Source of the DNA: a virus
Length of the DNA: 22,278 bases
Virus record (IMG/VR): IMGVR_UViG_3300008113_008230
Coordinates: 1-22,278 of that record
Strand: one strand, 5' to 3'
The position numbers and the translations under genes are program-made. Under the pieces are notes generated by a model, which had not been told where the DNA came from, did no database searches, and was given only the letters and a program-made list of their open reading frames with translations. Of the stretch, positions 45 to 16,896 are shown one piece after another (the first letter of the stretch is position 1; every line of letters starts with the position of its first letter).

Positions 45-104
45 CTTGAAACTAAAAATTTCAATATTGTTACAAAAGTATTATACAAATATACATAACG
101 CTTT

Positions 105-135: not shown

Positions 136-153
136 AACCAAAACAAAACACAG

Positions 154-3415: not shown

Positions 3416-4171
3416 ATGATCAAGTTACTAGATTTATTAAAAGAAGCACAAGGTAAACCAAAAGCCATATTCCTGGCTGGCCCCGCTGGTTCTGGTAAAA
3501 CATTTACTTCTGCGCAGTTAATACCGAAAACTTTAACTGTAATTAATGTCGATGACACCTATGAAGAATTACTGAAAGCAGCAGGTTTAGGCATGAAAAT
3601 CGCAGATTTCAATCAAGATCAATTGTCTCAAGCAGCTAAATTAATGGGTCAAGCTCAAAAAGCTACTAAAGAAAAATACGCAGAATTATCTGGAGCTAAA
3701 AAAGATATTATTATAGATGGTACTGGCGCTGCTAGTAAACCACTATTAAAGAAAAAACAAGAATTAGAAGCATTAGGCTACGATACAATGATGGTCATGA
3801 TTTGGGTTTCACCTTATACATCATTAGAACGTAATGCTAGCCGTGATCGTGCATTAGCACCTGCTATTGTTGTTAAAACATGGGCTGGTGTAAATGCTAA
3901 TATTGATAATTACAAACAAGCATTTGGTGATAAATTTGTTTTAATTAACAATGACCCAACAGGTAAAGCAGAATATGATCCTGCTGTTGCTAGAGAAAGA
4001 TTCTTTAAAACAGTTAAAGGTAGTGGTAAGGTTTACACACCAGATGAGAAAGTTAAGCGTGATAAAGAAATATTAGATTTAAATACAGCAATACAAGCAT
4101 TAGTTAAAAGAACACCAGAATTTACATCTATGGAAGATGCTAAATCTAAAATAAATACATTTTTAAAGTAA
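3416..4171 (+). CDS. Zeta-toxin-like P-loop kinase with capsid-targeting-like N-terminus
   Basis: A 251-residue P-loop kinase. It carries a Walker A motif GPAGSGKT (residues 22-29), an NVDD stretch soon after, a lid-like RNASRDRAL segment and a Lys-rich C-terminus. The layout is that of the zeta-toxin family, whose known members phosphorylate UDP-N-acetylglucosamine or other small substrates; the substrate here is unknown. The start at 3416 is chosen over an upstream in-frame ATG (3377) because 3377 lies inside the hairpin and 3416 gives the N-terminus MIKLLDLLKEAQ. That N-terminus matches the short helix ending in (L/I)xE shared by nine proteins in this window, with LKE at 8-10. No antitoxin gene lies beside it. 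The stop overlaps the next start (TAATG), so the two are translationally coupled. I infer packaging in the capsid; the enzymatic class is fairly sure. Confidence 0.75.
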   Translation: MIKLLDLLKEAQGKPKAIFLAGPAGSGKTFTSAQLIPKTLTVINVDDTYEELLKAAGLGMKIADFNQDQLSQAAKLMGQAQKATKEKYAELSGAKKDIIIDGTGAASKPLLKKKQELEALGYDTMMVMIWVSPYTSLERNASRDRALAPAIVVKTWAGVNANIDNYKQAFGDKFVLINNDPTGKAEYDPAVARERFFKTVKGSGKVYTPDEKVKRDKEILDLNTAIQALVKRTPEFTSMEDAKSKINTFLK

Positions 4172-5391
4172 TGAACTTAGGACAATATATAGCAAACGTA
4201 ATATTAGAAGCAGAAGATAAACCAACTATTGCTTTATTTCCAGGTGCTTTTAAACCACCTCACAAAGGTCACTTTGCTGCTGTTAAAAAATTATTAGAGC
4301 AAGCTGATCAAGTAGTTGTTTTAATCTCACCTAAAACACGTGAAGGTGTTACTGCAGATGAAAGTATTGCTATATGGGAATTATATAAGACATTATTAGA
4401 TGGTTCTGTTGAAATAAGAGTTGCTGGTGAAAGCCCTGTTAAAGAAGCTTATAAAGTAGCTGAATCAAATCCAGATACTAATTTTATTTTAGCTTCAGGT
4501 AAAGGTGAAGATGAAAGATTTAAAACAGCAATCGCTAAATTACCTAATGTTAAATCAGTAGATGTAGGTAATTTTGAAGGTACAAATGCAACTGATTTAC
4601 GTGTTGCTTTACAAACAAATAATGAAGACGCAATTAAACAATATCTTCCAGATGGAGTTAATATAGCTGATTTTTTACAAGCATTAAGCAAAAAAATGAA
4701 AGCCAACACAGATGCTACTCCAGTAGATGTTGATTTGCAAGAAAGACAATATCAAAATACAGATGATGCTTATGAATCAATAGTATCAGCAGAGGAAAGT
4801 GAAATTGAACGTGCAGCTCAAGATTTTAATGTTCCTATTCCTGATATGAGATATGCTTTTGTAGCAGGTAATATGGTTGTATTAAGTGATGATATTTGGT
4901 CTAAATTAGAAAATAGTGATTCATATGAAATGTTTAGTAAAGCATTAGGTAAAACACCAAAAGTATTAATGGGTACTTTAAATTTAGGTGTACCTAAACG
5001 CACTACTACAATAAGCGAAGTTAAAAAATTAAACGAAAGCGAAACGGGTACAATAGGAGAATTTATTAAATTTGCAATTAAAAATTTGGGAATACAAAAT
5101 CCTCCTCGTAACTTAGCCCTATCATATGATACTGCTAAAGCAAAGGAAATGAGGAGTTTTGGATATTTTGATCCGAATAGCAATAAAATATGGGTTTACT
5201 GCGGAAATAGAAACATGGGTGATATTTTAAGAACATTAGCACATGAGTTAGTACACCGTAAACAAGACGAAGACGGACGTATTAGTTATGAAAGCGGTAA
5301 AACAGGAAGTGAGATTGAAAATGAGGCGAACGCTAAAGCGGGAGTATTATTACGCGACTTTGGCAAACAACATGAAGAAATTTATCAATAG
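4171..5391 (+). CDS. Nucleotidyltransferase / HExxH metallopeptidase fusion, capsid-targeting-like N-terminus
   Basis: A 406-residue protein with two enzyme-like ends. Residues about 20-170 form a cytidylyltransferase/NMNAT-type Rossmann domain with FPGAFKPPHKGH, in which HKGH is the (H/T)xGH nucleotide-binding motif. Residues about 285-406 form a zincin-like domain with HELVH near residue 359 and a downstream EIENEANAKAG that could supply the third metal ligand. The middle is acidic and contains LQE and LNE tripeptides that could be prohead-protease sites separating the domains. The N-terminus MNLGQYIANVILEAED places ILE at 11-13, the shared capsid-targeting-like pattern. Nucleotidyltransferases with short MKTF-type N-termini are common in T4-like phages. 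The exact nucleotide substrate and protease target are unknown. It overlaps the kinase upstream and is followed after 2 nt by the HAD gene. Confidence 0.75.
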   Translation: MNLGQYIANVILEAEDKPTIALFPGAFKPPHKGHFAAVKKLLEQADQVVVLISPKTREGVTADESIAIWELYKTLLDGSVEIRVAGESPVKEAYKVAESNPDTNFILASGKGEDERFKTAIAKLPNVKSVDVGNFEGTNATDLRVALQTNNEDAIKQYLPDGVNIADFLQALSKKMKANTDATPVDVDLQERQYQNTDDAYESIVSAEESEIERAAQDFNVPIPDMRYAFVAGNMVVLSDDIWSKLENSDSYEMFSKALGKTPKVLMGTLNLGVPKRTTTISEVKKLNESETGTIGEFIKFAIKNLGIQNPPRNLALSYDTAKAKEMRSFGYFDPNSNKIWVYCGNRNMGDILRTLAHELVHRKQDEDGRISYESGKTGSEIENEANAKAGVLLRDFGKQHEEIYQ

Positions 5392-5393
5392 TT

Positions 5394-5861
5394 ATGTATA
5401 TTATTTATTGTGACATGGATGGTGTCCTTGTCGATTTTGAAAAAGGTTATTACGATATAACTGGTGTATCCACTAAACAATTTGTTAAGGGTGATAATGC
5501 ATTTTGGGAACCAATAGATGCTGAAGGTTCATCATTTTGGGCTAATCTACCTTGGATGCCTGATGGGCAAGAGTTATGGCGTTATATTAAAAAATATAAA
5601 CCAAATATTTTATCGTCTCCTTCTCGTAGTGCAACATCTAAAGTAGGTAAAGAAGCATGGTTGAAAATGCATCTACAAAATAGTTATAAAAAAGCTTACT
5701 TTTATGTAAGACATCAAAAACAATTATTTGCTGGTGAAAATCGTATATTAATTGACGATTTACCAAATACAATTGATGAATGGAATGCTAAAGGTGGTAT
5801 TGGTATATTACATACCTCAGCAGCAAACACAATAAAAGAACTTAAAAAATTAGGGTTATAA
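5394..5861 (+). CDS. HAD-superfamily 5'(3')-deoxyribonucleotidase-like protein
   Basis: A 155-residue HAD phosphatase. Motif I is DMDGVLVDF (residues 7-15), with the two catalytic aspartates D7 and D9. ILSSPS is a plausible motif II. RHQKQLFAGE followed by RILIDD supplies the lysine and acidic pair of motifs III/IV. The length and DMDGVLVDF fit 5'-nucleotidases of the NT5C type, which dephosphorylate nucleoside monophosphates, though other small phosphomonoesters are possible. It lacks the capsid-targeting-like N-terminus of its neighbours, so it probably works in the cytoplasm of the infected cell. It is packed tightly between the nucleotidyltransferase (2-nt gap) and the zinc-ribbon gene (TAATG overlap). 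Confidence 0.8.
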   Translation: MYIIYCDMDGVLVDFEKGYYDITGVSTKQFVKGDNAFWEPIDAEGSSFWANLPWMPDGQELWRYIKKYKPNILSSPSRSATSKVGKEAWLKMHLQNSYKKAYFYVRHQKQLFAGENRILIDDLPNTIDEWNAKGGIGILHTSAANTIKELKKLGL

Positions 5862-6442
5862 TGAGTGAATCACAATTACAACGTGAATTTAAGGAACGCG
5901 ACGTACAACGTATGCGTAATATTATTAAAAAAGATTATACTGCTAAAACCACTACTCAAGTTGGTTATACTAAAGCTTATGTTGATCATAAAGAAGGTGA
6001 TGTTTGGGAAGAAGATGGCAAAAAATGGACTCTAAAAAATGGTATCAAACAATCAGTGACTCGTTTTGATTCATTAAAAAAAGCAATATCTTTACCTATA
6101 TCATGTCCTAAATGTGGTAAAGGTATGAAATCAACTACTTTAAATAAAAAAATGTGGCCTATACATAAGATGTGTTTTGATTGTGTAATTACAATGGAAA
6201 CTGAATTAAAGCGCCAAGGTAAGTTTGAGGAATATGTTTATGAATTAACTACACGAGGTATTAAAACTTATATTAAAGATTTAGAAGATGCATTATTAGA
6301 CATGGCCTCTGAAAGTAATGAAAGTTTTGTAACTGAAGCGGGCGATGTTGAAAAATGGGCTGGTAAAGGAATAGACAATAATAAACTCACCCAAGACCTA
6401 CAGGAATACATTCAAAAATTGAAGGACCACGTTAATTCTTAA
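5861..6442 (+). CDS. Zinc-ribbon phage protein of unknown function
   Basis: A 193-residue protein with a CPKCGKGM pair and a CFDC pair about 28 residues later, a likely four-cysteine zinc ribbon (about residues 82-115). Before it comes GDVWEEDGKKWTLKNGIKQ, a segment I associate with conserved proteins of T4-like environmental phages, and after it a helical, charged C-terminal half ending in DLQEYIQKLKDH. The N-terminus is charged and helical but has no (L/I)xE signal. I cannot assign a function; nucleic-acid or protein binding through the ribbon is the simplest guess. It overlaps the HAD stop (TAATG) and ends the first tight operon, since a candidate promoter box starts right at its stop codon. 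Confidence 0.6.
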   Translation: MSESQLQREFKERDVQRMRNIIKKDYTAKTTTQVGYTKAYVDHKEGDVWEEDGKKWTLKNGIKQSVTRFDSLKKAISLPISCPKCGKGMKSTTLNKKMWPIHKMCFDCVITMETELKRQGKFEEYVYELTTRGIKTYIKDLEDALLDMASESNESFVTEAGDVEKWAGKGIDNNKLTQDLQEYIQKLKDHVNS

Positions 6443-6449
6443 TATTTAT
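6442..6449 (+). promoter_or_regulatory. ATATTTAT box (candidate late promoter)
   Basis: An exact ATATTTAT begins on the last base of the zinc-ribbon stop codon and lies 22 nt before ATG 6472. Same sequence and similar spacing as the boxes at 10569, 15926 and 19267. Confidence 0.5.
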
Positions 6450-6471
6450 TGGTAATCATCTTGTATAATAA

Positions 6472-6756
6472 ATGAATGCCGATAATATTTACACCGTACT
6501 AATGACAGCCATTACCGTTCTTGGTAGTGCTGCTGCTTTCCGATTCTATGAAAAAAAATCAATGCGCAAAGAACGTGATGAAGACTTTATTCGTCATGAC
6601 TGTAAAGATCGTATTGCTAAATTAGAAGCCTTATTAGCATCTTCATCAAAAGAAAAAGATGAAATGCGCACTCAAATACTTGAATTAGTAGCTGAAGTAG
6701 CGGCATTAAGAACTGAAATCAAATATTTGACTGATCGTAATAAATCTAGTATATGA
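6472..6756 (+). CDS. Small membrane-anchored coiled-coil protein
   Basis: A 94-residue protein with one N-terminal membrane helix (about residues 5-25, YTVLMTAITVLGSAAAFRFY), a basic stop-transfer (KKSMRKERDED) and a coiled coil (about 47-88, LEALLASSSKEKDEMRTQILELVAEVAALRTEI). This topology resembles small phage lysis-related or inner-membrane spanin-like proteins, but there is no specific signature and no neighbouring endolysin in the window. It is the first gene after a candidate promoter, and its stop overlaps the next start (ATGA). A role in the inner membrane is likely; lysis is only a guess. Confidence 0.55.
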   Translation: MNADNIYTVLMTAITVLGSAAAFRFYEKKSMRKERDEDFIRHDCKDRIAKLEALLASSSKEKDEMRTQILELVAEVAALRTEIKYLTDRNKSSI

Positions 6757-7136
6757 TAAAATTATTAGAACTTCTTGAAGAAGAAGAAATATTAGAATAC
6801 GATGTTGAAAATGAACAAGATATAAGAGAATTTATTGAGTTCATGGAATCGTATCAACAAGAGCTTAACGAAGCTGATTGTGATTGTTTGCTTGAAGCTA
6901 AGTATCAAGGTCGCACTGTGCCATTAGGTAAACCAATGCGTGGTGATAGTAAGAAATTTAAGGTGTATGTTAAAAATCCTCAGACAGGTAAAGTTGTAAA
7001 AGTTAACTTTGGTGCTAAAGGAATGAACATCAAGAAAAATAATCCTAAACGCCGCGCTGCCTTTAGAGCAAGACATAATTGTAAAAACCCAGGACCACGT
7101 ACTAAAGCTAGATATTGGTCTTGTAGAAAATGGTAA
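6753..7136 (+). CDS. Head-associated basic protein with acidic, cleavable-looking propeptide
   Basis: A 127-residue protein sharply divided in two. Residues 1-48 are very acidic and begin MIKLLELLEEEE, with (L/I)xE tripeptides at 8-10 (LEE), 38-40 (LNE, followed by A) and 46-48 (LLE, followed by A). Residues 49-127 are strongly basic, with KFKVYVKNPQTGKVVKVNFG, then NPKRRAAFRARHNC and a C-terminal ARYWSCRKW. I recognise this basic part as typical of small conserved proteins encoded near head genes in T4-like marine phages. Cleavage at LLE/A would release a compact basic, Cys-containing protein suited to bind packaged DNA. The start overlaps the upstream stop (ATGA). The processing is inference from the T4 gp21 (L/I)xE rule. 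Confidence 0.6.
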   Translation: MIKLLELLEEEEILEYDVENEQDIREFIEFMESYQQELNEADCDCLLEAKYQGRTVPLGKPMRGDSKKFKVYVKNPQTGKVVKVNFGAKGMNIKKNNPKRRAAFRARHNCKNPGPRTKARYWSCRKW

Positions 7137-7137
7137 T

Positions 7138-7548
7138 ATGATAAAATTAACTGAAATAGTACACGATATACTATCTGAAAAACTTTGTAAAAAAGGTAGA
7201 GCCTATTATAATCGTCGTAGAGCTGCTGGTGAAAAACCTTCAGCTTACCTTTCTGGTCGTGCTGTTAAAGTGTGTAAGGGATTAATGGAAGAAGATGATT
7301 TAGATATGCATGAATCACTTCGTGATTGGTTTAAAAAAGAAGATTGGGTTCGTATTGATACAGCAGGTAATATAACTGGTCCTTGTGGTACAATGAAAAA
7401 AGGTAATAAAACAACTCGTTGTTTACCTCGTGCTAAAGCAAATAGTTTATCTAAAGCTGAACGCGCGGCTACATCAAAGAAAAAAGCAGCATCATCTAAA
7501 CAATTTGTACCTAATACTAAGAAAGCAAAAGTAAAGTTAAATAAGTAA
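7138..7548 (+). CDS. Small basic protein with capsid-targeting-like N-terminus
   Basis: A 136-residue, Lys/Arg-rich protein. The N-terminus MIKLTEIVHDILSEK carries LSE at 12-14. Then come CKKGRAYYNRRRAAGEKPSAYLSGRAVKVC, an acidic stretch (EEDDLDMHES), a RDWFKKEDWVRIDTAG...GPCGT block with CLPRAKANSLSKAE, and a Lys/Ala/Ser-rich tail ending NTKKAKVKLNK. The paired cysteines and WF/DWV...GPCGT block recur in small uncharacterised phage and giant-virus proteins, as far as I can recall. High basicity and the N-terminal signal together suggest a DNA-condensing internal head protein. It follows the previous gene by 1 nt and overlaps the next start (TAATG). Confidence 0.55.
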   Translation: MIKLTEIVHDILSEKLCKKGRAYYNRRRAAGEKPSAYLSGRAVKVCKGLMEEDDLDMHESLRDWFKKEDWVRIDTAGNITGPCGTMKKGNKTTRCLPRAKANSLSKAERAATSKKKAASSKQFVPNTKKAKVKLNK

Positions 7549-10500
7549 TGAGACCCATAGACAAATTTATATTACACATAGTTCATAACTTATTCCCTTT
7601 AAATGAATATTCTGAAGGTGAATTAAAAAAGTTAATGGCTCAATTTAGAGAAGAGGCTGACGATTTAGGTATTGAAATTACTGATGGTCAATTAAAAGCT
7701 TATATTACACGTTTTGATGCACTAAAAAATTCTCCTAAAGTAACAGATAAAGATTTACGCAAATATACTTTATCAAAACTAATTAAACTAGTTACATCAT
7801 CTCCAGGTGCTGATGCTCCAGAAGAAAAAATAGACGATACCCCTGATGTAGTATATCATGAAGAACCTTATATTATTTGGAATGGTTCTAAAGAAGGTAA
7901 TTGTATTAAATATGGCCAAGGTGAAAAATGGTGTATTACTAGAGGCTCATTTAGTAGCTACCGTTATTCATCTGGTAGAGGATATCCAGTATTTTATTTA
8001 GCTAAAAACAATAGTTTATCTGATGACAACAAATTAAGTTTTGTTGCTATTCAGGTTAGAGATACTGATAGAGAGGATCAAAGATACGTTTATACTAATA
8101 GAAAAAATAGTCCATACGAATCAAATCCAATGAGTTGGGAACAACTTAATAGTGAAATTCCTTGGTTAAGAAATATTCCTAATGTTAAAAACATTATGAA
8201 ATATATCCCTATTTCTAGTCAAGAAAAACTAACTCAAAAATATGCATATGATGCTGTTACTGTTAGAGAATGGATTAATTTTCCATTTGAAACTAAAAAA
8301 CAATATTTAGTAGTTAGAGGCTCAAGAGGTCAATTTTTTAGTGATATTGATAATGATGTTTTTGTAGAAAAATATCTTCCTAAATACCCACAAATTGCTA
8401 ATTTTATAGCAATAACCCCTGGTCTTATAAGTTCAAAAGAATTATTAAAAAATATAGACAAATTTTCTAATCAAGATAGAAAATCAATTACAGCTAACTT
8501 AAGAGATAAAATTGAATTAAAATATCTATCATCAGATTATTTTCCATGGGATGTTAAGAAATTATTAACGACTTTAAATAAATGGAATTTACAACAAGAC
8601 GATAGATTATATACTACTAAAGATGGATCTGCTATAGTTAAACTATTATTAGGAGATAATATTAAAGTAAGTGTATACACAGAAGAAGATGATTATCCTA
8701 ATGTTAAGTTAAATAAACGTACAGCTAAATTTTTACTTGATTATCCTGAATTAGACAAGATTCCATTTAAAAATTTAATGAAATTGGTTGTAGATGATGT
8801 TATTGATAAAAATGTAGTTACAAAATTACTTGATGATGCTAAAACTAATCCTAATTCTGCTATTATAGTTAAACAAATAGCAGATGGTGAAATTATATTA
8901 GATTCAAATTCATTTGCTTCTTATAAAATTGATAAAGATGGTGGTATATTACCTGTACCATTTGATAATGAAGAAGTACAAGCTGCTTTTGATGATGCTA
9001 AGAATAATGAAGGATTACAACAAAATGCTCTTTCTTTATTATCATATAATACTAGAATCCCAAAAAGTATAGACAGAAAATCATTTATATCAATATTAAG
9101 AGCTATACCTTTAGATAGAAGAACAGTTGAATGGAGAGGTAATCCTGCAGTTATAATTACTACTGAAAACGATAAGATTTTAGTAATGACTGCAAATAGA
9201 GGTCCTTCAAATTTACAACAAACAGCAGTATACGGAGATTATGAAGGCGCAGAGAACTGGGTAATTCCAAATAATGGAGGTTATTCATCAGATCCTGCAG
9301 TATATAGAGCATATTACACTTATTTAGGTACCCAAAATAAAAAATTCAGCGATAATGATATTGTTGGAGCAGTTAGATCAGCAGGTCAAGCTACAGGAAA
9401 TTCTAGAGTAGGTAATGCAATTATTGAAGCTCAACCTCCAATGGTTGAAGGCAATTTAATGAAACCAATAATGTATAATGGTAATGGATATATTATTAAT
9501 ACTCAAAATCCAAGAGAAAGTTTTGGTGTATCCAGTGCTTCAGGTAAACTAGTTAAAGCTAATATTTCACCAGCTATGGCTGCTGCTATGTTAGGTTTAC
9601 CTGCTCCCGCAGCAGCTGCAGCAGCAGGTAGAAGAGGCAGACCAGCAGGTGGTGGTGCTCCTCGTCAACAAGCAGCGGCACCAGCAACAACAGGTGATAT
9701 TAACGTTCGTGAAGTAATGGATGAAACTGGATTAGATACAGCATTTTTACGTTTACCAAGATCTATTATAAGAAGATTAAATGTTACTAATGCAGTACGT
9801 GTTGCTCCAAATGGTGATAGAGGTGCTGCTCGTCGTAATAACCAATTAGGAGGTAGAGGTACTGTAGGTAGAGTAATAGCTATAGGCAGTAGCAAAATTT
9901 ATTTTATTAGATTAGCTAGTGGACAGATTATAGCATCTATCAATGTACAACCTGGTAATTACAACTATATATTAACAGGCAATAATGCTGGTAACAATGC
10001 AATATCATTAAACTCACCAGCAGATTTAGTACAAGTACTAACACAACGTGGGTTGGCAGAACATCGTTCGTATATTGTGCGTGAATATTTAAATAATAAT
10101 CCAAAACATGCACAAGAAGTAAGAGATATGGTAGCAAAACACATAGACGAAATTAGCGCTAAAAAAGCAATAGCTACAGGCGCTTTAACATTAGGTTTGT
10201 TGGGTACTCCATCATTAACACAAGCTCAAAATACTATTAAAGACAAATTTAAAGCAGGTATCACAGCTATACAGAATAAAATAAAACCTCAACAAAAATC
10301 TGATACAGTAAAAATACAAAAAGACGCACCCTTAGTGTTAGCTAAGTTTAAAGACTTTAAAGGAGCTGGATATGGGTTTGCTTCATCACCAAATCAATCA
10401 ACAGCTCGGACGCAGGCTTTACTTAAAGCTAAAGCAGACTTAATGCAAAAGATGGGAGTCCAACGTATAACAGCTGGATTTGAAGAAAAAGACAGTAAAA

Positions 10501-10562
10501 TGTACCAACTACCTGATGGGACCTATCAATGCGAGGTAGTAGTAGTAATTGGAAACATGTAA
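7548..10562 (+). CDS. Very large multidomain protein, candidate packaged internal protein
   Basis: A 1004-residue protein, the largest intact gene here. The N-terminus MRPIDKFILHIVHNLFPLNE places LNE at 18-20, the shared capsid-targeting-like pattern. Residues about 118-140 contain C-x-KYGQGEKWCITR, followed by GYPVFYLAKNN, a Cys/Trp motif I have seen in other large phage proteins without a known activity. Residues about 200-480 are helical. An Ala/Gly-rich linker near 680-720 holds GRRGRPAGGG, an AT-hook-like core. Residues about 775-840 look like a small beta domain with two GxGTVGRVIAIGSSKIYFIRL-type strands. A hydrophobic signal-peptide-like stretch follows at 872-894 (from KKAIATG to LTQAQ). 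The C-terminus GYGFASSPNQSTARTQALLK resembles an LPP20-like fold. No single family covers it. It overlaps the upstream stop and is followed by a candidate promoter. Confidence 0.65.
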   Translation: MRPIDKFILHIVHNLFPLNEYSEGELKKLMAQFREEADDLGIEITDGQLKAYITRFDALKNSPKVTDKDLRKYTLSKLIKLVTSSPGADAPEEKIDDTPDVVYHEEPYIIWNGSKEGNCIKYGQGEKWCITRGSFSSYRYSSGRGYPVFYLAKNNSLSDDNKLSFVAIQVRDTDREDQRYVYTNRKNSPYESNPMSWEQLNSEIPWLRNIPNVKNIMKYIPISSQEKLTQKYAYDAVTVREWINFPFETKKQYLVVRGSRGQFFSDIDNDVFVEKYLPKYPQIANFIAITPGLISSKELLKNIDKFSNQDRKSITANLRDKIELKYLSSDYFPWDVKKLLTTLNKWNLQQDDRLYTTKDGSAIVKLLLGDNIKVSVYTEEDDYPNVKLNKRTAKFLLDYPELDKIPFKNLMKLVVDDVIDKNVVTKLLDDAKTNPNSAIIVKQIADGEIILDSNSFASYKIDKDGGILPVPFDNEEVQAAFDDAKNNEGLQQNALSLLSYNTRIPKSIDRKSFISILRAIPLDRRTVEWRGNPAVIITTENDKILVMTANRGPSNLQQTAVYGDYEGAENWVIPNNGGYSSDPAVYRAYYTYLGTQNKKFSDNDIVGAVRSAGQATGNSRVGNAIIEAQPPMVEGNLMKPIMYNGNGYIINTQNPRESFGVSSASGKLVKANISPAMAAAMLGLPAPAAAAAAGRRGRPAGGGAPRQQAAAPATTGDINVREVMDETGLDTAFLRLPRSIIRRLNVTNAVRVAPNGDRGAARRNNQLGGRGTVGRVIAIGSSKIYFIRLASGQIIASINVQPGNYNYILTGNNAGNNAISLNSPADLVQVLTQRGLAEHRSYIVREYLNNNPKHAQEVRDMVAKHIDEISAKKAIATGALTLGLLGTPSLTQAQNTIKDKFKAGITAIQNKIKPQQKSDTVKIQKDAPLVLAKFKDFKGAGYGFASSPNQSTARTQALLKAKADLMQKMGVQRITAGFEEKDSKMYQLPDGTYQCEVVVVIGNM

Positions 10563-10568
10563 ATTAAC

Positions 10569-10576
10569 ATATTTAT
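10569..10576 (+). promoter_or_regulatory. ATATTTAT box (candidate late promoter)
   Basis: An exact ATATTTAT lies 18 nt before ATG 10595, with an A-rich spacer and no Shine-Dalgarno. The 18-nt spacing is identical to that of the box at 15926, which serves a gene with a similar N-terminus. Confidence 0.55.
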
Positions 10577-10594
10577 ACACATAAACACAATAAA

Positions 10595-11359
10595 ATGAAT
10601 ATTACCGAAGTACGTAACGTCATTAAATTAGCTATCGCAGAAGCGATGGAAAAAGGCGGCTTACCAAAAAGTGGTGGAAAATTAGTACACCTTAAGAAAG
10701 AATTAGCTAGCTTAAAGAATATGAAAGAATCTTTAGGTCAATTACAAATCGCTGAAGGCGGTGAGCAACAATTCGTAGCTGAATATGCTCATATGCAAAA
10801 ATTTGTTACTGAATTAGAAAAAATCAAAGCTGCTCATGCTAAATTAGCTGAAATGTTAGACAAACAAATTTCTGAAGTTGAAGGTAAAGTTTCATCTGAA
10901 ACTGAAAAGATTAAAGAAATGGTTGGTTTAATCGAAAAAGCTCCTAAAGCTGCTAAAAAAGACGCTAAGAAAGCTCCTGCTAAAAAAGACGATAAGAAAG
11001 AAGAGCCTAAGAAAGCTGAAAAGAAAGAAGAGCCTAAAGCTGACGATTCTAAAAAAAAAAGTAAAGAATTAGCTGAAGAATTAGATACTAAAAAAGTATA
11101 CGGCGGTATTGCACAAAACCAAGGCTCAACTGGATCTTCACTTCAATTTACAGTAAGTGAAAATACTCCTGAGTATTTTGAAATTGATTATATACTTACT
11201 CCTAATTCTAAAAATAGACCAGCGGGTGCTGGTTCTAGAAGCCCTCGTGAAAAGGAATATGGGTATGCTAAAATTTTAAAAAAGGACTTTAATGGTTCTA
11301 TTACAGTAAAAGGTGAAAATTTTAACATAGGTAAAGATTTTATTACAAACAATCTTTAA
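10595..11359 (+). CDS. Coiled-coil, Lys/Glu-rich candidate internal head protein
   Basis: A 254-residue protein. The N-terminus MNITEVRNVIKLAIAEAMEK has IAE at 14-16 followed by A, and resembles the start of the 15952 protein. Residues about 30-115 are a coiled coil. Residues about 115-165 are a low-complexity Lys/Glu/Ala/Pro linker in which the DNA word at 10994-11010 is repeated at 11021-11037. The last 90 residues form a separate soluble-looking domain (KVYGGIAQNQGSTGSS...TPEYFEIDYIL...GYAKILKKDF). No family is recognised. Coiled coil plus charged linker is compatible with a scaffold-core or internal protein. It is the first gene of a cluster running to 13485. Confidence 0.6.
   Translation: MNITEVRNVIKLAIAEAMEKGGLPKSGGKLVHLKKELASLKNMKESLGQLQIAEGGEQQFVAEYAHMQKFVTELEKIKAAHAKLAEMLDKQISEVEGKVSSETEKIKEMVGLIEKAPKAAKKDAKKAPAKKDDKKEEPKKAEKKEEPKADDSKKKSKELAEELDTKKVYGGIAQNQGSTGSSLQFTVSENTPEYFEIDYILTPNSKNRPAGAGSRSPREKEYGYAKILKKDFNGSITVKGENFNIGKDFITNNL
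10994..11037 (+). repeat. Short direct repeat in the Lys/Glu-rich linker
   Basis: The 17-base word AAGAAAGAAGAGCCTAA occurs at 10994-11010 and again at 11021-11037, 27 bases apart and in frame. It encodes repeated KKEEPK units, so length variation here would keep the reading frame. Confidence 0.7.
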
Positions 11360-11367
11360 TATAAACA

Positions 11368-11817
11368 ATGATCAAATTATTTGATATATTAGCTGAACGC
11401 GATTTATCCGCTAAAGAAGAAAAAATAGTTAAAGCATTAAAGAAAACAGGGAAGTTCAAAAAGGACGACCCTGCTCTTTATGCTATTGCTGCTTCAAAAG
11501 CTGAAGGATTAGATCCAGTAGGTAAAGAAGATGACGACATCAATAATGATGGTAAAGTAAATAAAACAGATAAATACTTATCTGCTCGTCGTAAAGCAAT
11601 ATCTAAAAACATAGATGAAACTCACCTAAATTGGCCTCCAACTCAAGATCACGAAGCTACAATGGCTATGGGTGAATTAAGAGATATGGTAGAAAACGGA
11701 ATGAAAGTCTATAAGATGATCAAACCAAACCAACAATTACCAGGTTGGGTATCAGGATACATTACATTAGCTTCCGATTACATGCATAGCATAGCTGAAT
11801 ACTTAACTGAGTACTAG
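11368..11817 (+). CDS. EF-hand-loop phage protein with capsid-targeting-like N-terminus
   Basis: A 149-residue protein starting [12 protein letters not shown], with LAE at 8-10. Residues 57-68 ([12 protein letters not shown]) form a 12-residue calcium loop with acidic or Asn residues at positions 1, 3, 5, 9 and 12, as in EF-hands and dockerins, followed by [10 protein letters not shown]. The C-terminal half has METGELRDM-type helices and [20 protein letters not shown], a segment I associate with capsid-region proteins of T4-like environmental phages. I infer a virion or prohead protein that may bind calcium. It lies 8 nt after the previous stop, and the sequence just past its stop continues open in another frame into the next gene. 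Confidence 0.6.
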
Positions 11818-11864
11818 AAAAATATGTTCGTGTAGCTGTTAAAAAAGCTATTAAGGAACAAGAA

Positions 11865-12329
11865 ATGAAGCAGAAGCGAGCTGAAAAGGCAATGTATTTA
11901 ATCTATCGTTTTCCTGGATTAAAAAAATTAATGGAAGATTTGATGTCTCCGTCTTTTGGTCGTTTTGTTACTGATATAAAATTATTAGCACCAAAACCAA
12001 CTACATTCTCTGCTAAGTTAATTAACGAACAAGATTTCGGAATTATATATAATGGTAAAGGTAAATTTACAATTAAAGTAGCAGGTAAAAAATACAATGT
12101 GCAAAACTTAGGTGAACTAGAAAGAGCACAACAATCAATTGCTAATATATTAGAATTAAATTACGGTGTAGAAGAAAAAGCAGCTGCTGAAAAACCTGAT
12201 GCAGGCGCTGAAGCATTTAGTGCTGCTACAGCCGCTCCAGCAGGTGAAATACCAGCTGAAACACCATCAGGAGCTGAAGCACCAGCTGAAGAAACACCTG
12301 AAGAAGAAGCACCACCAGCCGAAGCATAA
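11865..12329 (+). CDS. Ala/Pro/Glu-tailed small protein, uncertain start
   Basis: At least 154 residues. The N-terminal two-thirds is folded-looking (YLIYRFPGLKKLMEDLMSP, then LINEQDFGIIYNGKGKFTIKVAGKKYNVQNLGEL), and the last 50 residues are an Ala/Pro/Glu-rich disordered tail. ATG 11865 is the first ATG in frame, but the frame is open back to TGA 11808-11810, directly over the stop of the previous gene. It would encode [17 protein letters not shown], an amphipathic helix with an IKE tripeptide much like the signals of its neighbours. No ATG, GTG or TTG exists in that extension. Either translation begins at 11865, or it is reached by a -1 shift from the EF-hand gene, or a base is missing. No family is recognised. 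Confidence 0.5.
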   Translation: MKQKRAEKAMYLIYRFPGLKKLMEDLMSPSFGRFVTDIKLLAPKPTTFSAKLINEQDFGIIYNGKGKFTIKVAGKKYNVQNLGELERAQQSIANILELNYGVEEKAAAEKPDAGAEAFSAATAAPAGEIPAETPSGAEAPAEETPEEEAPPAEA

Positions 12330-12330
12330 T

Positions 12331-13485
12331 ATGGAAGTTATAGATAAAATATTATTAGAGTGGTCTTATCGTTGCCACGATGGGATTGTTGATTTAAATG
12401 ATCCTATTAAGTTGTCTATACTACAAGAAATGGTTAATGAATTAGAATTAGAAGAAGCTATGTTATCGTTAAATACAATTAAAAAACGTCCTGATCAATT
12501 TGTTAATATTTTCTATAGTAACACTCCTTTTAAATTAGGTGCTCAAGGAGAAGATAATTTTACAGCAAATAGTATTGTAGTAGGAAATGAAACTTTTTCA
12601 TCTGAAAATGAAGAAGAAAAATCTAATTTAATAGGAGCTATTAGAAATATTGATAATGCTCGTAATGTTAGAATTACAGGACAATTAAATGGTCAAGAAA
12701 CAACTATAAACATAGGTGCTATTTATAAATCAAAAAACTTAGGAGGACAAGAATTAGGAGGTGCTGGGGTATCTAATGAAAAAGAATTAGTAAATACTAT
12801 TAATAGTTTTGTAGAAGAAAATGGTGGTCCTATAAATGTTAAATTTATAGATAAAGAAAATAAAGAAATTTTTATACCTAATGTTAAACAAGCATCAGGT
12901 ATGGGAACAACAGGTAGTAAATTGGGTCTTAAAGGAGACGTATCATTAACTACAACTGATGGTGAACAAAATATATCTGTAAAAAAAGATGGTCCTTATT
13001 GGTGGAGTAGTGAAAGAAAAAATTTCAATGATTTATTAAATAAATTTATTGAAGGTGGACAAAGAGGTGCAATATCTAAATTACAGATAAAACCGAACCC
13101 ATTACAGCCTAAGATATTAGATATGATGGACCCTGAAGATGGAAGAAGATATGGAAGAGTATTTATCCTTAACTACCCAGGCATTGAAGATAATTTAGAA
13201 AATATTACATTTGGTCCTGATAAGGCTAAGATAGTACAACGTTCATTTTCATCTACAGACTATAGTCTTGAAAATGGTACTTTAACTATTAAGACTACTA
13301 GAAACATGAATGATGTAAGTGACTTACAACCTGATGATATACCCGTTATATCATTAGCACGTCATGAAAATCAAAAATATGGTATTGATTTTAGAACAAT
13401 TCCATTAAAACAAGCAAAACTAGAACCAACTAGAGGAGGAAAAACATTAGTCTTAGACTATGATAAGACTCCTGCATTACAATAA
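12331..13485 (+). CDS. Candidate PD-(D/E)xK-like nuclease with capsid-targeting-like N-terminus
   Basis: A 384-residue protein. I start it at ATG 12331, one base after the previous stop, because it yields MEVIDKILLEW (LLE at 8-10), matching the other signals. An upstream in-frame ATG at 12199 would instead read through the Ala/Pro/Glu tail of the neighbour in the wrong frame. Residues about 195-225 contain GSKLGLKGDVSLTT then NISVKKDGPYWWSS. D203 on one strand and S216-V-K218 on the next give the D...(E/S)xK spacing of PD-(D/E)xK nuclease cores. The first third has beta-rich repeats (VRITGQLNGQETTINIG and INVKFIDKENKEIFIP). The C-terminus has a beta-rich LENGTLTIKTTRN. The nuclease call is a motif-level guess; the gene itself is clear. 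Confidence 0.6.
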   Translation: MEVIDKILLEWSYRCHDGIVDLNDPIKLSILQEMVNELELEEAMLSLNTIKKRPDQFVNIFYSNTPFKLGAQGEDNFTANSIVVGNETFSSENEEEKSNLIGAIRNIDNARNVRITGQLNGQETTINIGAIYKSKNLGGQELGGAGVSNEKELVNTINSFVEENGGPINVKFIDKENKEIFIPNVKQASGMGTTGSKLGLKGDVSLTTTDGEQNISVKKDGPYWWSSERKNFNDLLNKFIEGGQRGAISKLQIKPNPLQPKILDMMDPEDGRRYGRVFILNYPGIEDNLENITFGPDKAKIVQRSFSSTDYSLENGTLTIKTTRNMNDVSDLQPDDIPVISLARHENQKYGIDFRTIPLKQAKLEPTRGGKTLVLDYDKTPALQ

Positions 13486-13489
13486 GACA

Positions 13490-13510
13490 GAACAGATTCA
13501 TTGCCTGTTC
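13490..13510 (+). other. Small inverted repeat after the nuclease-like gene
   Basis: GAACAG (13490-13495) is complementary to CTGTTC (13505-13510) with a 9-nt loop, 5 nt past the stop codon. It could be the first of two stacked stem-loops that end the upstream transcript. No T-run follows. Confidence 0.35.
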
Positions 13511-13541
13511 GCTCATAAGAGATAATTATATTGGAGTAGTG

Positions 13542-13560
13542 GCCCACCCAAAAGGTGGGC
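13542..13560 (+). terminator. GC-rich hairpin, probable transcript end
   Basis: GCCCACC (13542-13548) pairs perfectly with GGTGGGC (13554-13560) around CAAAA. It stands out in this AT-rich genome and separates the head-protein cluster from the oxidoreductase. The classical T-tract is missing (TACCTTACATTT follows), so it may be a weak terminator or an RNA-stabilising stem. Confidence 0.5.
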
Positions 13561-13578
13561 TACCTTACATTTGGAAAA

Positions 13579-13603
13579 GTCAAAATTTTTTATTATATTT
13601 ACA
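13579..13603 (+). promoter_or_regulatory. Putative promoter of the oxidoreductase gene
   Basis: GTCAAAATTT (13579-13588) and TATATTTACA (13594-13603) reproduce the arrangement at 20-44 with identical spacing. TATATTTA fits the Bacteroidota TAnnTTTG -7 element, and TTTGG at 13570-13574 lies about 19 nt upstream, a suitable -33 position. The ATG is 15 nt downstream of 13603. Confidence 0.5.
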
Positions 13604-13618
13604 TGTTTAATTTAATTT

Positions 13619-14923
13619 ATGAGTAAAAAAATTGTAATAATTGGAGCAGGAGTAGCAGGTATTAATGCCGCTACCAAATTAGTAGATAATGGCTACGATG
13701 GTAGCCTAATCACAATCATTGATAAGGGTAAAAACCCAATTGATCGTTTACCTGAAGAAGTAATGACTGGTATGCTAGGTGCTGGTGGTTGGTCAGACGG
13801 TAAATTAGTAGTATCAACAGTACAAGGTGGACAATTGTCTAAGTATTGTGGTGAAGAAAAAGCTATGGATTTAATGAATGAAGTAGTAGCTAACTTTACT
13901 CGATTCCACCCACAACCAGATGCTATATCATGTTCTAACCCAACAGAAGAACCCGAGTTTATCAAACCTTATTTTGATTTGCGTATGTCGCTTGTATGGC
14001 ATATTGGATCAAATTTCTTACATGAAATTGCTAAAAATTGGTATCAATTCTTGTTAGATAAAGGTGTTAATTTTATTTGGGAAAAAGAAGTAGTAAATAT
14101 TCATTTTCAATCAAATGATGTTCGTTATGGAGATCCTGGTTGTGGATGTAGAGCTGCTCATATGCCTTATGATGAATTAATATTTGCAGTAGGTAAATCA
14201 GGTATTGATTTTGCTCAATTATTATCAACACAATACCAACTACCAACAGAAGCTAAAGCAGTACAAATTGGGGTTAGATTTGAAGCACCACAAAAATACT
14301 TCCAGAAATTAATTGATGTATCTTATGACTTTAAATTATATCAAAAATATGATACTGTTTCTATTCGTTCATTCTGTACTAATAATAATGCGGCTTATGT
14401 TGCTGTAGAAGAAACATATGGTAATCTAAGTTATAATGGTCATGCTAAAAAAGGAGATGAATTTAAAAATGATATGACTAACTTTGGTATTTTAATGGAA
14501 ATTAAGGGTATTGAAGATCCATTTAAGTGGAGTAGAGATGTAGTTCAACAACTACAAATTGATGGAAAAGGATTATATTATTCACCTAATAGAACTCGTA
14601 CCCCTGGATTAACATCAGAAGGATCAATTGTAACTAGCTACCAAATAAATCACCTACAACCCTTTAAAGATGCTTTAGGTGAATATGCAGACTATGTTCT
14701 TAATTTTATTAATCAAATGAATAAAATATTTGAATTTGGTGATGATTGGGGAATGTATATTCCTGAAGTTAAATACTTGTCACCTGAACCATTAGTAGAA
14801 TACAAAGATTTATCTTTAACATTATTCCCAAATGTACACTTTGCTGGTGATGCTCTATCAGCTAGAGGTATTACAGTATCAGGAGCACACGGAATTTATA
14901 TTGCAGAAAATTTAATAAAATAA
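13619..14923 (+). CDS. FAD-dependent oxidoreductase
   Basis: A 434-residue flavoprotein. The N-terminal Rossmann fold has GAGVAG (G9-x-G11-xx-G14) and an acidic-end strand ITIIDKG. A central stretch holds GDPGCGCRAAHMPYDELIFAVGKSG, the second dinucleotide-binding strand with three nearby cysteines. The C-terminus VHFAGDALSARGITVSGAHGIYIAENL is the FAD-contacting GD motif. The layout resembles uncharacterised FAD-dependent dehydrogenases of the COG2509 kind. The substrate is unknown. It has its own promoter-like sequence and an isolating hairpin upstream, so it may be expressed apart from the head genes. There is no capsid-targeting-like N-terminus. It is probably a host-derived metabolic gene kept by the phage. 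Confidence 0.8.
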   Translation: MSKKIVIIGAGVAGINAATKLVDNGYDGSLITIIDKGKNPIDRLPEEVMTGMLGAGGWSDGKLVVSTVQGGQLSKYCGEEKAMDLMNEVVANFTRFHPQPDAISCSNPTEEPEFIKPYFDLRMSLVWHIGSNFLHEIAKNWYQFLLDKGVNFIWEKEVVNIHFQSNDVRYGDPGCGCRAAHMPYDELIFAVGKSGIDFAQLLSTQYQLPTEAKAVQIGVRFEAPQKYFQKLIDVSYDFKLYQKYDTVSIRSFCTNNNAAYVAVEETYGNLSYNGHAKKGDEFKNDMTNFGILMEIKGIEDPFKWSRDVVQQLQIDGKGLYYSPNRTRTPGLTSEGSIVTSYQINHLQPFKDALGEYADYVLNFINQMNKIFEFGDDWGMYIPEVKYLSPEPLVEYKDLSLTLFPNVHFAGDALSARGITVSGAHGIYIAENLIK

Positions 14924-14925
14924 AA

Positions 14926-15174
14926 ATGTCAGAAACAAAGAAAATTAAAACTAAAGATAACTCTATAGTTTATTATATAAACGTAGATGGAAAAAACAAA
15001 ATGCATAACTATGATGGTCCTGCTTATTTCCCTCAAGGTAATAAGCGTGCTGCTGAATACTATGTATTTGGAATTAAACATACTAAAGATCAATTTGATA
15101 GTATTAAAAAAGATGCTAACGGTGTTCCGTTCTATAAAACAGCAGCTGGTAAAGCAGCAGGAGCTAGAGTATAG
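14926..15174 (+). CDS. Small protein with a DGPA motif
   Basis: An 82-residue protein. The central YYINVDGKNKMHNYDGPAYF followed by EYYVFG resembles the tyrosine-rich YxNG-hR-DGPA units found in small phage proteins of unknown role, here as a single unit. The C-terminus is Ala/Gly/Lys-rich. It begins 2 nt after the oxidoreductase stop, so it is probably co-transcribed. No enzyme motif is visible. Confidence 0.55.
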   Translation: MSETKKIKTKDNSIVYYINVDGKNKMHNYDGPAYFPQGNKRAAEYYVFGIKHTKDQFDSIKKDANGVPFYKTAAGKAAGARV

Positions 15175-15201
15175 TCAAAATAAAGATCGTACATTTACTG
15201 T

Positions 15202-15411
15202 ATGAAATATCAACGAGTATACGAACACGAAGACACTACTGAGACTTGGACATTCGATACTGATAAGTTCAGAAATGGACCTATTAGTGTCGAAATCAAG
15301 TATAAAAATGGTGCTGATAAGCAGAAAAACTGGAATAAATTGGCTAAACAAGCTAGAGATGATAAGCGTAGTGCTCGTCAAATGAAAAAAATAAACGAAA
15401 GAAACAAATGA
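15202..15411 (+). CDS. Small charged protein of unknown function
   Basis: A 69-residue protein with an N-terminal beta-like half (YEHEDTTETWTFDTDKF...ISVEIKYKNG) and a basic helical C-terminus (KLAKQARDDKRSARQMKKINERNK). It overlaps the kinase start by ATGA, so coupling with the kinase is likely. No family is recognised. An overlapping + frame at 14987-15205 is rejected as a shadow. Confidence 0.55.
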   Translation: MKYQRVYEHEDTTETWTFDTDKFRNGPISVEIKYKNGADKQKNWNKLAKQARDDKRSARQMKKINERNK

Positions 15412-15926
15412 AAATTGGATTAGCAGGTACAATGAGTGTGGGTAAAACTACATTAGTTAAAGCACTATCTGAATTAGAGCGATTTAAAGACTATCATATT
15501 GCTACTGAACGTAGCAAATATCTTCGTGATTTAGGTATTCCATTAAATACAGATTCATCTATAAATGGTCAATTTGTATTTTTAGCAGAGCGTGCTAGTG
15601 AATTATTACGTGAAAATGTATTAACAGATAGAACTATTTGGGATGTTTGCGCATTTACATTCTCAGCAAAATCAATTGATTGGTTTGCTAAACGTTCTTT
15701 TGTTGAAGCTGCTATGCATCTTCGTGATCAATATGATATTGTATTTTATGTATCACCTGAAGGTGTGCCTATTGAAGATAATGGTGTGCGTACTATTGAT
15801 GCTGAATATCGTAATAAAATTGATTGGGTTATTCGTGAATCATTGGAAGAATATAAACCTAAGAAATTAGTATATATTAAAGGTACAACTGAAGAACGTA
15901 TCGCTACAATTTTACAAAACTTATAA
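15408..15926 (+). CDS. NadR-like P-loop kinase (AAA_28 type)
   Basis: A 172-residue P-loop nucleotide kinase. Walker A is GTMSVGKTT (residues 7-15), followed by LVKALSEL, ATERSKYLRDLG, a QFVFLAERASE helix, the LTDRTIWDV segment (a DR motif typical of the family) and DIVFYVSPEGVPIEDNGVRT with lid arginines. This order matches the AAA_28/NadR-C kinases, whose characterised members phosphorylate nicotinamide riboside; other small nucleosides are possible. A nucleotidyltransferase that could act on an NMN-like product lies in the same window (4171). It overlaps the small gene upstream (ATGA) and is followed at its stop by a candidate promoter. Confidence 0.7.
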   Translation: MKIGLAGTMSVGKTTLVKALSELERFKDYHIATERSKYLRDLGIPLNTDSSINGQFVFLAERASELLRENVLTDRTIWDVCAFTFSAKSIDWFAKRSFVEAAMHLRDQYDIVFYVSPEGVPIEDNGVRTIDAEYRNKIDWVIRESLEEYKPKKLVYIKGTTEERIATILQNL

Positions 15927-15933
15927 TATTTAT
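15926..15933 (+). promoter_or_regulatory. ATATTTAT box (candidate late promoter)
   Basis: An exact ATATTTAT begins on the last base of the kinase stop and lies 18 nt before ATG 15952, exactly as at 10569/10595. The spacer is A-rich. Confidence 0.55.
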
Positions 15934-15951
15934 ATGCATAATAAAAACAAA

Positions 15952-16896
15952 ATGAAAGTATCAGAACTACAAGAAATTATACGTAAAGTAATAAAAGACA
16001 CCATAAACGAAGCAGATCTATCACCAGCTGATAAAACTGCTAAAGATGCCGAGATGAAAGCAATTGATGCTAAAATTAAAGCATTAAATGCTAAAAAAAC
16101 AGATTTAGCATCTGGTAGAGAAGATATTACGGAAGACAATGTAAGCGAATTAGCTAACGTAGCTGTACGCTATGAATTAGCTCCTGATGTTAACGCTGCT
16201 GATTTTGCTGGTAAGAAAAATAGAATTATTACTGCTATGAAAGCTACAGAAGAACCAATGTCAAAAATTGATGTAGCTGGTGAGTTAGGATATGATAAGC
16301 AAAATCCAATCAATAAAGATTTTATGGAACTTGTTGCTGATGGCACAATTGTACAATCAGGTGGACAAGCAGCTCCTCGTTTAAATCGCCCAGCGGGTGA
16401 ACCTGCTGCTACTGCTGCTGCAGATGATGAATTTGATTTCATTAAAGGTGATATGAGCGATGAAGAAATTGATGCTAGTTTTGCAAAAGCAGCTGCTGCT
16501 GGAGATGAAGAACCAGAAATTGGTGATGTTGAAAGAACATCTTCATCTGCACCAAAATTAACAGATGATGAATACGAAGCTTTTATGAAAGCTATTGACT
16601 TAGAACGTCGTTTAGCTGCTACAAAATCTAATATTTTAAAATTAAGAAAAGGTAGAAGTACAGCTGGTGATATTAGTGATAAACCATCAAGCGAATTACA
16701 ACGTTTACGTGATTTAAAAGCATCATTAGAAAAACGTTTAGCTGATCTAGAATCAACCTCAGCATACTTAAGCCAACGTAACAAGTTATCTGGTAAAACC
16801 CCAGAAGAACCTAAGATTGATGATGTAGAAGATGAAGAACCAATAGACGAGTGGGCAGTTAGTAGAGCCCAATATTATGCAGGAATTAAAAAATAA
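15952..16896 (+). CDS. Coiled-coil / winged-helix-like candidate internal head protein
   Basis: A 314-residue acidic protein. I use ATG 15952 rather than 15934 because it restores the promoter-to-start spacing seen at 10595 and gives MKVSELQEIIRKVIKDTINEAD, whose pattern parallels the 10595 protein and carries INE at 18-20 followed by A. Residues about 20-45 form a coiled coil. Residues about 85-135 (NRIITAMKATEEPMSKIDVA and FMELVADGTIVQSGG) look like a winged helix. An Ala/Asp/Glu-rich middle follows, then a second long coiled coil (about 205-265) and an acidic tail ending SRAQYYAGIKK. No family is assigned. It is inferred to be packaged or scaffold-associated. Confidence 0.6.
   Translation: MKVSELQEIIRKVIKDTINEADLSPADKTAKDAEMKAIDAKIKALNAKKTDLASGREDITEDNVSELANVAVRYELAPDVNAADFAGKKNRIITAMKATEEPMSKIDVAGELGYDKQNPINKDFMELVADGTIVQSGGQAAPRLNRPAGEPAATAAADDEFDFIKGDMSDEEIDASFAKAAAAGDEEPEIGDVERTSSSAPKLTDDEYEAFMKAIDLERRLAATKSNILKLRKGRSTAGDISDKPSSELQRLRDLKASLEKRLADLESTSAYLSQRNKLSGKTPEEPKIDDVEDEEPIDEWAVSRAQYYAGIKK

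What the first reader, a model, noticed from the sequence alone, without database searches (positions are those of the whole stretch)
3416..16896. Nine proteins share a T4-type capsid-targeting N-terminus: a candidate packaged effector set
Proteins starting at 3416, 4171, 6753, 7138, 7548, 10595, 11368, 12331 and 15952 differ completely in body, yet all begin with a short amphipathic helix ending in (L/I)-x-E within 20 residues: LKE, ILE, LEE, LSE, LNE, IAE, LAE, LLE and INE. Five even start MIKL or close to it. In T4, internal proteins (IPI-III, Alt) have an N-terminal capsid-targeting sequence cut by gp21 after (L/I)xE. The control is good: terminase, portal, HAD, NadR-like kinase and oxidoreductase here lack it. 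The cargo includes a zeta-like kinase, a nucleotidyltransferase/peptidase, a possible nuclease and very basic proteins. I infer a set packed into the head and possibly injected with the DNA.
Basis: partly seen in the sequence, partly recalled or inferred. Interest (0 to 1): 0.88.

Follow-up and report, generated by a model that had tools for sequence, protein, structure and literature searches.

The report
Phage head-loading tags on diverse proteins
In a T4-type virus of Bacteroidota bacteria, about ten unrelated proteins, including a toxin-like kinase and a nucleotide-making enzyme, carry a short start tag that very probably loads them into the virus head, where a virus protease would cut the tag off, so the virus may arrive with ready-made enzymes.

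Summary
The nine leaders are real, and the T4-style reading holds up well. The window is a fragment of a phage related to Flavobacterium phage immuto, probably Far-T4. Every large close relative examined carries a T4-type (S77) prohead protease, a few genes past the portal where placed. In those genomes [LI]xE at residues 8-24 marks 60-75% of genes in the kinase-to-capsid block, against 17-22% elsewhere and about 20% of internal windows. The residue after E is unusually often A, G, S or N. The strongest test is one body (gene 6753): 115 distinct fused versions have a hydrophobic residue at P3 and E at P1 in 96% each, exactly where 83 leaderless homologues begin with Met. In virions of the T4-like cyanophage S-CREM2, all five proteins with a strict T4-type tag were detected by published mass spectrometry; none of 134 undetected proteins has one. 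Nobody has shown packaging, cleavage or injection in this phage. New points: a large clustered set, leader cassettes on swapped bodies, and multi-domain cargo with protease-like sites at internal joints.

The parts
3416..3445 (+). Leader MIKLLDLLKE of a zeta-toxin-like P-loop kinase (predicted mature part 3446-4168)
   Evidence: Pfam Zeta_toxin E 1.1e-9, solved zeta toxin 1gvn E 0.0013; leader kept in relatives as LLKE|A, LLLE|I, LLME|A
4171..4209 (+). Leader MNLGQYIANVILE of a nucleotidyltransferase + metallopeptidase protein (mature 4210-5388)
   Evidence: CTP_transf_like, cytidyltransferase PHROG; the same enzyme type with tag MKNFSSFLTE or MRFRQFIIE is in virions of S-CREM2 and S-SZBM1
5029..5037 (+). 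Internal LNE|S site at the joint before the HELVH peptidase-like domain of gene 4171
   Evidence: Same joint RLDE|S, RLNE|S, KLNE|S in relatives with other upstream sequence; free-standing homologue in phage B23 starts MNYKQFLRE|ST
5394..5861 (+). HAD / 5'-deoxyribonucleotidase; no leader here, but leader-bearing orthologues in relatives
   Evidence: NT5C; relatives MKKVMGNLADLLLEES, MGKLADLLLTEE, MIALKDLFLEV
6753..6896 (+). 48-residue acidic leader ending LLE|A of a small very basic protein (mature 6897-7133, pI 11.6)
   Evidence: Homologues in non-T4 phages start M-AKYKGRTV at the predicted cut; 115 distinct fused versions have [LIVM]xE|A at the joint
7138..7179 (+). Leader MIKLTEIVHDILSE of a basic DUF5872-like protein (mature 7180-7545, pI 10.2)
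   Evidence: Orthologues ILSE, ILAE, VITE, ILTE: middle residue varies, ends fixed; DUF5872 E 3e-4
7548..7607 (+). Leader MRPIDKFILHIVHNLFPLNE of a 1004-aa protein of unknown fold
   Evidence: LNE/LTE kept in orthologues down to 36% identity; no family; low-confidence model
10595..10642 (+). Leader MNITEVRNVIKLAIAE of a coiled, Lys/Glu-rich protein
   Evidence: IAE|A kept in G007, G004, G108
11368..11397 (+). Leader [10 protein letters not shown] of a small protein with a DINNDGK (EF-hand/dockerin-like) stretch
   Evidence: In relatives the LDPVGKED stretch follows the leader almost directly: DILNE|A, HLVE|G, NLVE|G, DLLE|N
11811..11864 (+). Remnant of the leader of gene 11865 ([18 protein letters not shown]), without a start codon here
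   Evidence: Start codon and leader intact in the sister contig; 50 bases absent from the window
12331..12441 (+). N-terminal module (37 aa, LLE at 10) of a PD-(D/E)XK-like candidate nuclease (to 13485)
   Evidence: Same 37 residues on a different body in immuto, 46% identity; conserved E150, D203, SxK218; fold search not significant
15952..16011 (+). Leader MKVSELQEIIRKVIKDTINE of a protein just upstream of the terminase region
   Evidence: Orthologues INE, VSE, INE, INE, LSE, ISE
17683..19263 (+). Terminase large subunit (context; not cargo)
   Evidence: Terminase_6N E 2.6e-10; has a chance IKE-8
19296..21173 (+). T4-type portal protein (context)
   Evidence: PF07230 E 7.6e-68; the S77 protease lies a few genes downstream in relatives

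Best explanation
The nine proteins (and at least one more) carry N-terminal capsid-targeting propeptides of the T4 type. During head assembly the short helical leader attaches the protein to the scaffold core. The phage's S77 prohead protease then cuts after [L/I/V]-x-E, usually before a small residue, leaving the mature body among the packaged DNA. At infection some or all of these bodies enter the cell with the DNA: a zeta-like kinase, a nucleotidyltransferase/peptidase, a candidate nuclease and very basic proteins. Shown here by sequence: the leaders, their enrichment, the cut-site pattern at domain joints, loss and gain of leaders on the same bodies, and the protease in relatives. Inferred: packaging, cleavage and injection in this phage, and the role in early host takeover or counter-defence.
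For: S77 protease in all close large relatives, with the same motif near the start of the protease itself (LLTE, ITE, LSE, LVE, LME) and of the scaffold (AIAE|A in immuto and G107), and at the likely capsid-protein cut. Enrichment in the head block. Small residue after E in 61/113 block sites against 30/137 elsewhere, p 1.3e-7. Gene 6753 body: P3 hydrophobic 96%, P1 Glu 96% in 115 distinct joints, neighbouring positions far lower; 83 leaderless homologues, S77 in 0 of 34 contigs tested. Same enzyme with or without leader (HAD; VTLDIPLFIRLLEY protein). S-CREM2 virion proteome: strict tag in 5/52 detected, 0/134 undetected, p 0.0015. T4 positive control: IPII and IPIII MKTYQEFIAE, gp24 LLRE|S. 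T4 internal proteins use 10-19-residue propeptides (PMC9026906) and IPI/IPIII act as injected anti-defence proteins.
Against: No proteomics for this phage or its near relatives. The bare motif has a 17-30% background. In the cyanophage S-SZBM1 a loose tag pattern was not enriched among virion proteins (2/30 against 17/156), and two strictly tagged proteins there were not detected. The authors of the cyanophage work say some detected enzymes could be CsCl contaminants. Mel-JY01 and some short contigs show weak or no enrichment. Site 12331 has Trp after E. Several block genes have no leader.
Confidence: 0.83

Rival explanations
1. Only some of the nine are true targeting propeptides; others (12331, 15952, perhaps 7548) have ordinary N-terminal helices that match the loose motif by chance or belong to structural, non-cargo proteins.
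For: Background rate 17-30%; Trp after E and a 37-residue conserved module at 12331; 15952 lies just upstream of the terminase region.
Against: Position and pattern are kept across orthologues with a varying middle residue.
Confidence: 0.45
2. The leaders are propeptides cut by the prohead protease, but the proteins serve head assembly or DNA compaction only and are not injected effectors.
For: Two mature proteins are extremely basic, +20 to +23; T4 IPIII affects head assembly (PMC9026906).
Against: Enzyme bodies (kinase, nucleotidyltransferase, nucleotidase) are hard to explain as assembly parts; T4 IPs and Alt are injected.
Confidence: 0.25
3. The shared N-termini are a different localisation or regulatory signal (membrane anchor, cell-envelope targeting or degron) unrelated to the head.
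For: Amphipathic helices occur in many signals (established knowledge; no tool result here favours it).
Against: Exact [LIV]xE|small pattern at domain joints, the same pattern in protease and scaffold, linkage to S77-bearing phages.
Confidence: 0.06
4. Chance: a common tripeptide picked out by the reader.
For: The bare motif is common.
Against: p 4e-9 to 9e-6 in three genomes; joint statistics.
Confidence: 0.02

Closest known systems
T4 internal proteins IPI, IPII, IPIII and Alt with capsid-targeting sequences (Mullaney and Black 1996, as reviewed in PMC9026906)
   Same: Short N-terminal leader ending [LI]xE, unrelated bodies, S77-type protease encoded by the phage (in relatives), basic small members, motif also in scaffold and capsid proteins
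   Different: About ten members in one block beside terminase and portal, three leader styles (MIKLxDILxE; MKxSELRxIIRExIxEVINE; RMQKLAGIITE), enzyme cargo, long or internal sites, Bacteroidota hosts
Virion-associated enzymes of T4-like cyanophages (S-CREM2, S-SZBM1, S-SM1: cytidylyltransferase; S-CREM2: APH-like kinase, SAM hydrolase)
   Same: Cytidylyltransferase-type enzyme in the virion, with a T4-type tag that I find in the two genomes examined here
   Different: The papers read here do not mention the tag; cyanophage tags are closer to MKxFxxFLTE
SPN3US / phiKZ head proteins with propeptides cut at AxE or SxE (PMC5694885)
   Same: Prohead protease cutting after xxE, packaged ejected proteins, long propeptides possible
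   Different: P3 is Leu/Ile/Val here, not Ala/Ser
P1 DarB capsid targeting (PMC9024508)
   Same: N-terminal signal sends an anti-restriction protein into the head
   Different: No shared consensus or known cut motif in P1

Membership tests
T4-type capsid-targeting (CTS) cargo proteins | N-terminal leader of about 10-20 residues ending in [LI]xE | tested here: met
   Nine of nine match the motif; cut placed at 48 for 6753 and uncertain for 12331
T4-type capsid-targeting (CTS) cargo proteins | Leader joined to unrelated bodies and separable from them | tested here: met
   Same bodies with and without leader; same module on different bodies
T4-type capsid-targeting (CTS) cargo proteins | S77 prohead protease encoded by the same phage | tested here: inconclusive
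   Window is a fragment with no hit; present in immuto, in 10 of 12 relatives and 7 of 8 contigs sharing cargo genes
T4-type capsid-targeting (CTS) cargo proteins | Same cut motif in protease, scaffold and capsid protein | tested here: met
   In relatives, as in T4 gp22, gp23 and gp24
T4-type capsid-targeting (CTS) cargo proteins | Protein present in virions, trimmed after the motif | not testable with these tools
   Only indirect: tagged enzymes detected in S-CREM2 virions, trimming not reported
T4-type capsid-targeting (CTS) cargo proteins | Leader sufficient to load a foreign protein; cargo injected | not testable with these tools
   Needs fusion and infection experiments
Far-T4 phages | T4-type portal and terminase closer to this group than to T-even phages and cyanophages | tested here: met
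   Best isolates immuto and Mel-JY01; RM378 ranks above T-even hits; portal only, no tree built
Far-T4 phages | Structural block with phoH near the major capsid gene | tested here: inconclusive
   True in immuto and Mel-JY01 and described in PMC4360716; window ends before it
phiKZ/SPN3US-type propeptides | Cut after AxE or SxE | tested here: not met
   P3 is L, V, I or M in 110 of 115 joints
Zeta-toxin-like kinase (gene 3416) | Zeta_toxin domain with P-loop | tested here: met
   Pfam 38.4 bits against cut-off 22.3; 1gvn E 0.0013; activity unknown
PD-(D/E)XK nuclease (gene 12331) | E...D...(S/E)xK core and matching fold | tested here: inconclusive
   Invariant E150, D203, K218; Foldseek hits to resolvases not significant, E 0.26 or worse

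The most novel reading that the evidence does not exclude
This branch of T4-type phages uses the prohead protease code [LIV]-x-E|small as a general loading and polyprotein-processing code. Multi-domain cargo (nucleotidyltransferase plus peptidase, up to 1358 residues in G108) carries internal sites exactly at domain joints, so several separate enzymes would be released inside the head and delivered together at infection. The same code would explain the puzzling metabolic enzymes in cyanophage virions.
Probability: 0.45. Interest if true: 0.82.

Novelty: new variant of a known kind. Interest (0 to 1): 0.72.

Why it matters
It turns a hard question, which phage proteins enter the cell with the DNA, into something that can be read from sequence in an abundant aquatic phage group. 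It offers a mechanism for virion-borne enzymes in cyanophages, which their authors could not separate from contamination. It gives a testable list of candidate first-wave counter-defence and takeover proteins, and a set of natural leaders for loading proteins into heads. The general idea was anticipated for T4 relatives (PMC9026906); the scale, the enzyme cargo, the joint statistics and the link to cyanophage virions I did not find in the papers searched.

Tried and rejected
S77 search in the window itself: no hit, because the record ends before the gene. Bare [LI]xE as a sufficient marker: rejected, background 17-30%. S-SZBM1 as a full replicate of S-CREM2: negative overall, only its cytidylyltransferase fits. 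A stricter pattern with a small residue after E was not significant in G108 and G009. Enrichment was not significant in the short contigs G007, G008 and in G011. Structure of 12331: model acceptable (pLDDT 76), PDB search without significant match. Structure of 7548: too poor to search. PADLOC: only weak, uninformative matches. No virion proteomics was found for immuto. Supplementary tables (S-SM1, S-SCSM1 proteomes) could not be read. One literature query failed and was not repeated.
Full report
WHAT THE WINDOW IS. The record is a 22,278-base virus fragment. It holds a T4-type terminase and a T4-type portal (Portal_T4 E 7.6e-68). The closest annotated phages are Flavobacterium phage immuto (60% over the portal) and Microcystis phage Mel-JY01, followed by uncultured phages and Rhodothermus phage RM378, ahead of any T-even phage. 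RM378 is the reference of the Far-T4 group (PMC4360716). I therefore place it among Far-T4 phages of Bacteroidota, by similarity and gene order, without a tree.

CHECK OF THE OBSERVATION. All nine starts and motifs are as stated. The bare motif alone is weak: 10 of 33 unrelated T4 genes have [LI]xE at residues 8-24, and in this window the terminase (IKE-8) and NadR-like kinase (LSE-22) have it too. Even so, 13 of 22 window proteins have it, against 34 of 213 internal windows.

GENOME-WIDE TEST. Annotated immuto: 15 of 20 block genes against 42 of 191 others, p 3e-6. With gene starts from my own caller (206 of 218 starts agree with the immuto annotation), relatives give G107 21/29 against 30/178 (p 4e-9), G108 19/31 against 36/181 (p 6e-6), G005 19/25 against 12/54 and G004 21/31 against 6/35. 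Internal windows of the same block proteins stay near 0.2. Weaker cases are reported: Mel-JY01 p 0.017, and G007, G008 and G011 not significant. Independently of how sites were chosen, the residue after E is A, G, S or N in 61 of 113 block sites and 30 of 137 others (p 1.3e-7).

THE PROTEASE. S77 (PF03420) is annotated in immuto four genes after the portal and found in 10 of 12 first relatives and in 7 of 8 contigs sharing window cargo genes, the exception being 15 kb long. Proteases of this lineage carry the motif near their own N-terminus (GLLTE|S, TITE|S, TLSE|A, TLVE|G), and the scaffold begins with an AIAE|A leader in immuto and G107.

DOMAIN JOINTS. The basic body of gene 6753 occurs alone in phages outside the T4 group, starting M-AKYKGRTV, M-ATYKGKSV or M-AKYQGRTV, exactly where LLE|AKYQGRTV would be cut in the window. 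In public viral contigs I collected 237 homologues: 83 start with Met directly before this point, 154 are fused (115 distinct contexts) to upstream stretches that can be hundreds of residues long. In those contexts P1 is Glu in 96% and P3 is L, I, V, M or F in 96%, while neighbouring positions are far lower. S77 was found in 0 of 34 contigs of the leaderless class and in 9 of 50 of the fused class; of eight fused-class contigs above 100 kb, six have a T4-type portal. The contigs are fragments and the leaderless ones are shorter (at most 55 kb), so absence is indicative only.

OTHER NATURAL COMPARISONS. The HAD enzyme has no leader here but LLLEES, LLLTEE or LFLEV leaders in relatives. A small VTLDIPLFIRLLEY protein has MKLIDLLLEAS and similar leaders in one set of relatives and starts directly in others. 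Gene 7138 keeps ILSE, ILAE, VITE, ILTE, varying only inside the motif. In relatives of gene 11368 the domain follows the leader almost directly (DILNE|A, HLVE|G, NLVE|G, DLLE|N). The first 37 residues of gene 12331 are shared with an immuto protein of otherwise different body.

VIRION DATA FROM RELATED PHAGES. For T4-like cyanophage S-CREM2 the paper lists 52 virion proteins (PMC10665884 Table 3). A strict T4-type tag occurs in five of them and in none of 134 undetected proteins (p 0.0015): SAM hydrolase MKDFDSFLEE, APH-like kinase MKRFDAFLTE, cytidylyltransferase MKNFSSFLTE and two proteins of unknown function. The regular expression was written after I had seen these sequences, although it follows the T4 leaders, so this p-value is optimistic. 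The S-SZBM1 virion cytidylyltransferase has MRFRQFIIE|A, but tags in general were not enriched there. S-SM1 also contains a cytidylyltransferase (PMC3037559). The papers read do not mention targeting sequences for these enzymes, and my searches did not find the link.

MECHANISM. As in T4 (PMC9026906): leader binds core, protease cuts after [LIV]xE, bodies stay in the head. Steps shown by sequence: leader, cut-site pattern, protease in relatives. Steps inferred: packaging, trimming, injection. Cargo roles are open: a zeta-toxin-like kinase, a nucleotidyltransferase with a peptidase-like C-terminus, a candidate PD-(D/E)XK nuclease (not confirmed by fold), two very basic proteins (mature charge +23 and +20) and a 1004-residue protein of unknown fold. 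T4 IPI and IPIII are precedents for counter-defence.

NEW ELEMENT. Multi-domain cargo has protease-like sites at internal joints: KLNE|S, RLDE|S, RLNE|S before the peptidase, and SLLLE|Q, TLAE|A, TLTE|A before the nucleotidyltransferase in relatives. A free-standing peptidase in phage B23 starts MNYKQFLRE|S. This suggests polyprotein-like processing in the head, which I rate at about even odds.

Noticed in passing
window 46-3352: A TonB-dependent receptor gene split by a frameshift near 880; homologues are 72% identical in a Bacteroidetes MAG and 68-70% in Sediminibacterium MAGs. Relatives examined (G004, G009, G107) have phage genes, not this, upstream of the kinase, so it may be host sequence joined by assembly.
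   Followed up: partly
window 4929, 11811/11812, 21198: Small gaps relative to near-identical contigs: 159 bases in frame in gene 4171 and 50 bases removing the start of gene 11865 (sister contig identical elsewhere), and about 239 bases removing the first 75 codons of gene 21185 (relative L002). Assembly collapse or real deletions.
   Followed up: partly
G107 41042, 41705, 51102; G108 54212, 57248; immuto 111675, 25061: A third leader style, R[MW]Q[KQ]LAGIITE, on unrelated proteins, nearly always in the head block.
   Followed up: partly
window 6753-7136 body: The small very basic AKYQGR domain (called HVA1 family in one record) is widespread in marine phages of several morphologies; its function is unknown.
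   Followed up: no
S-SZBM1 122311 and 122628: Two proteins with textbook T4 tags (MKSFKSFLSE, MKTFKQYITE) near the terminase that were not detected in virions by mass spectrometry.
   Followed up: no
window 13619-14923: A conserved flavin oxidoreductase-like gene without leader in the same block, 65-88% identical in relatives.
   Followed up: no
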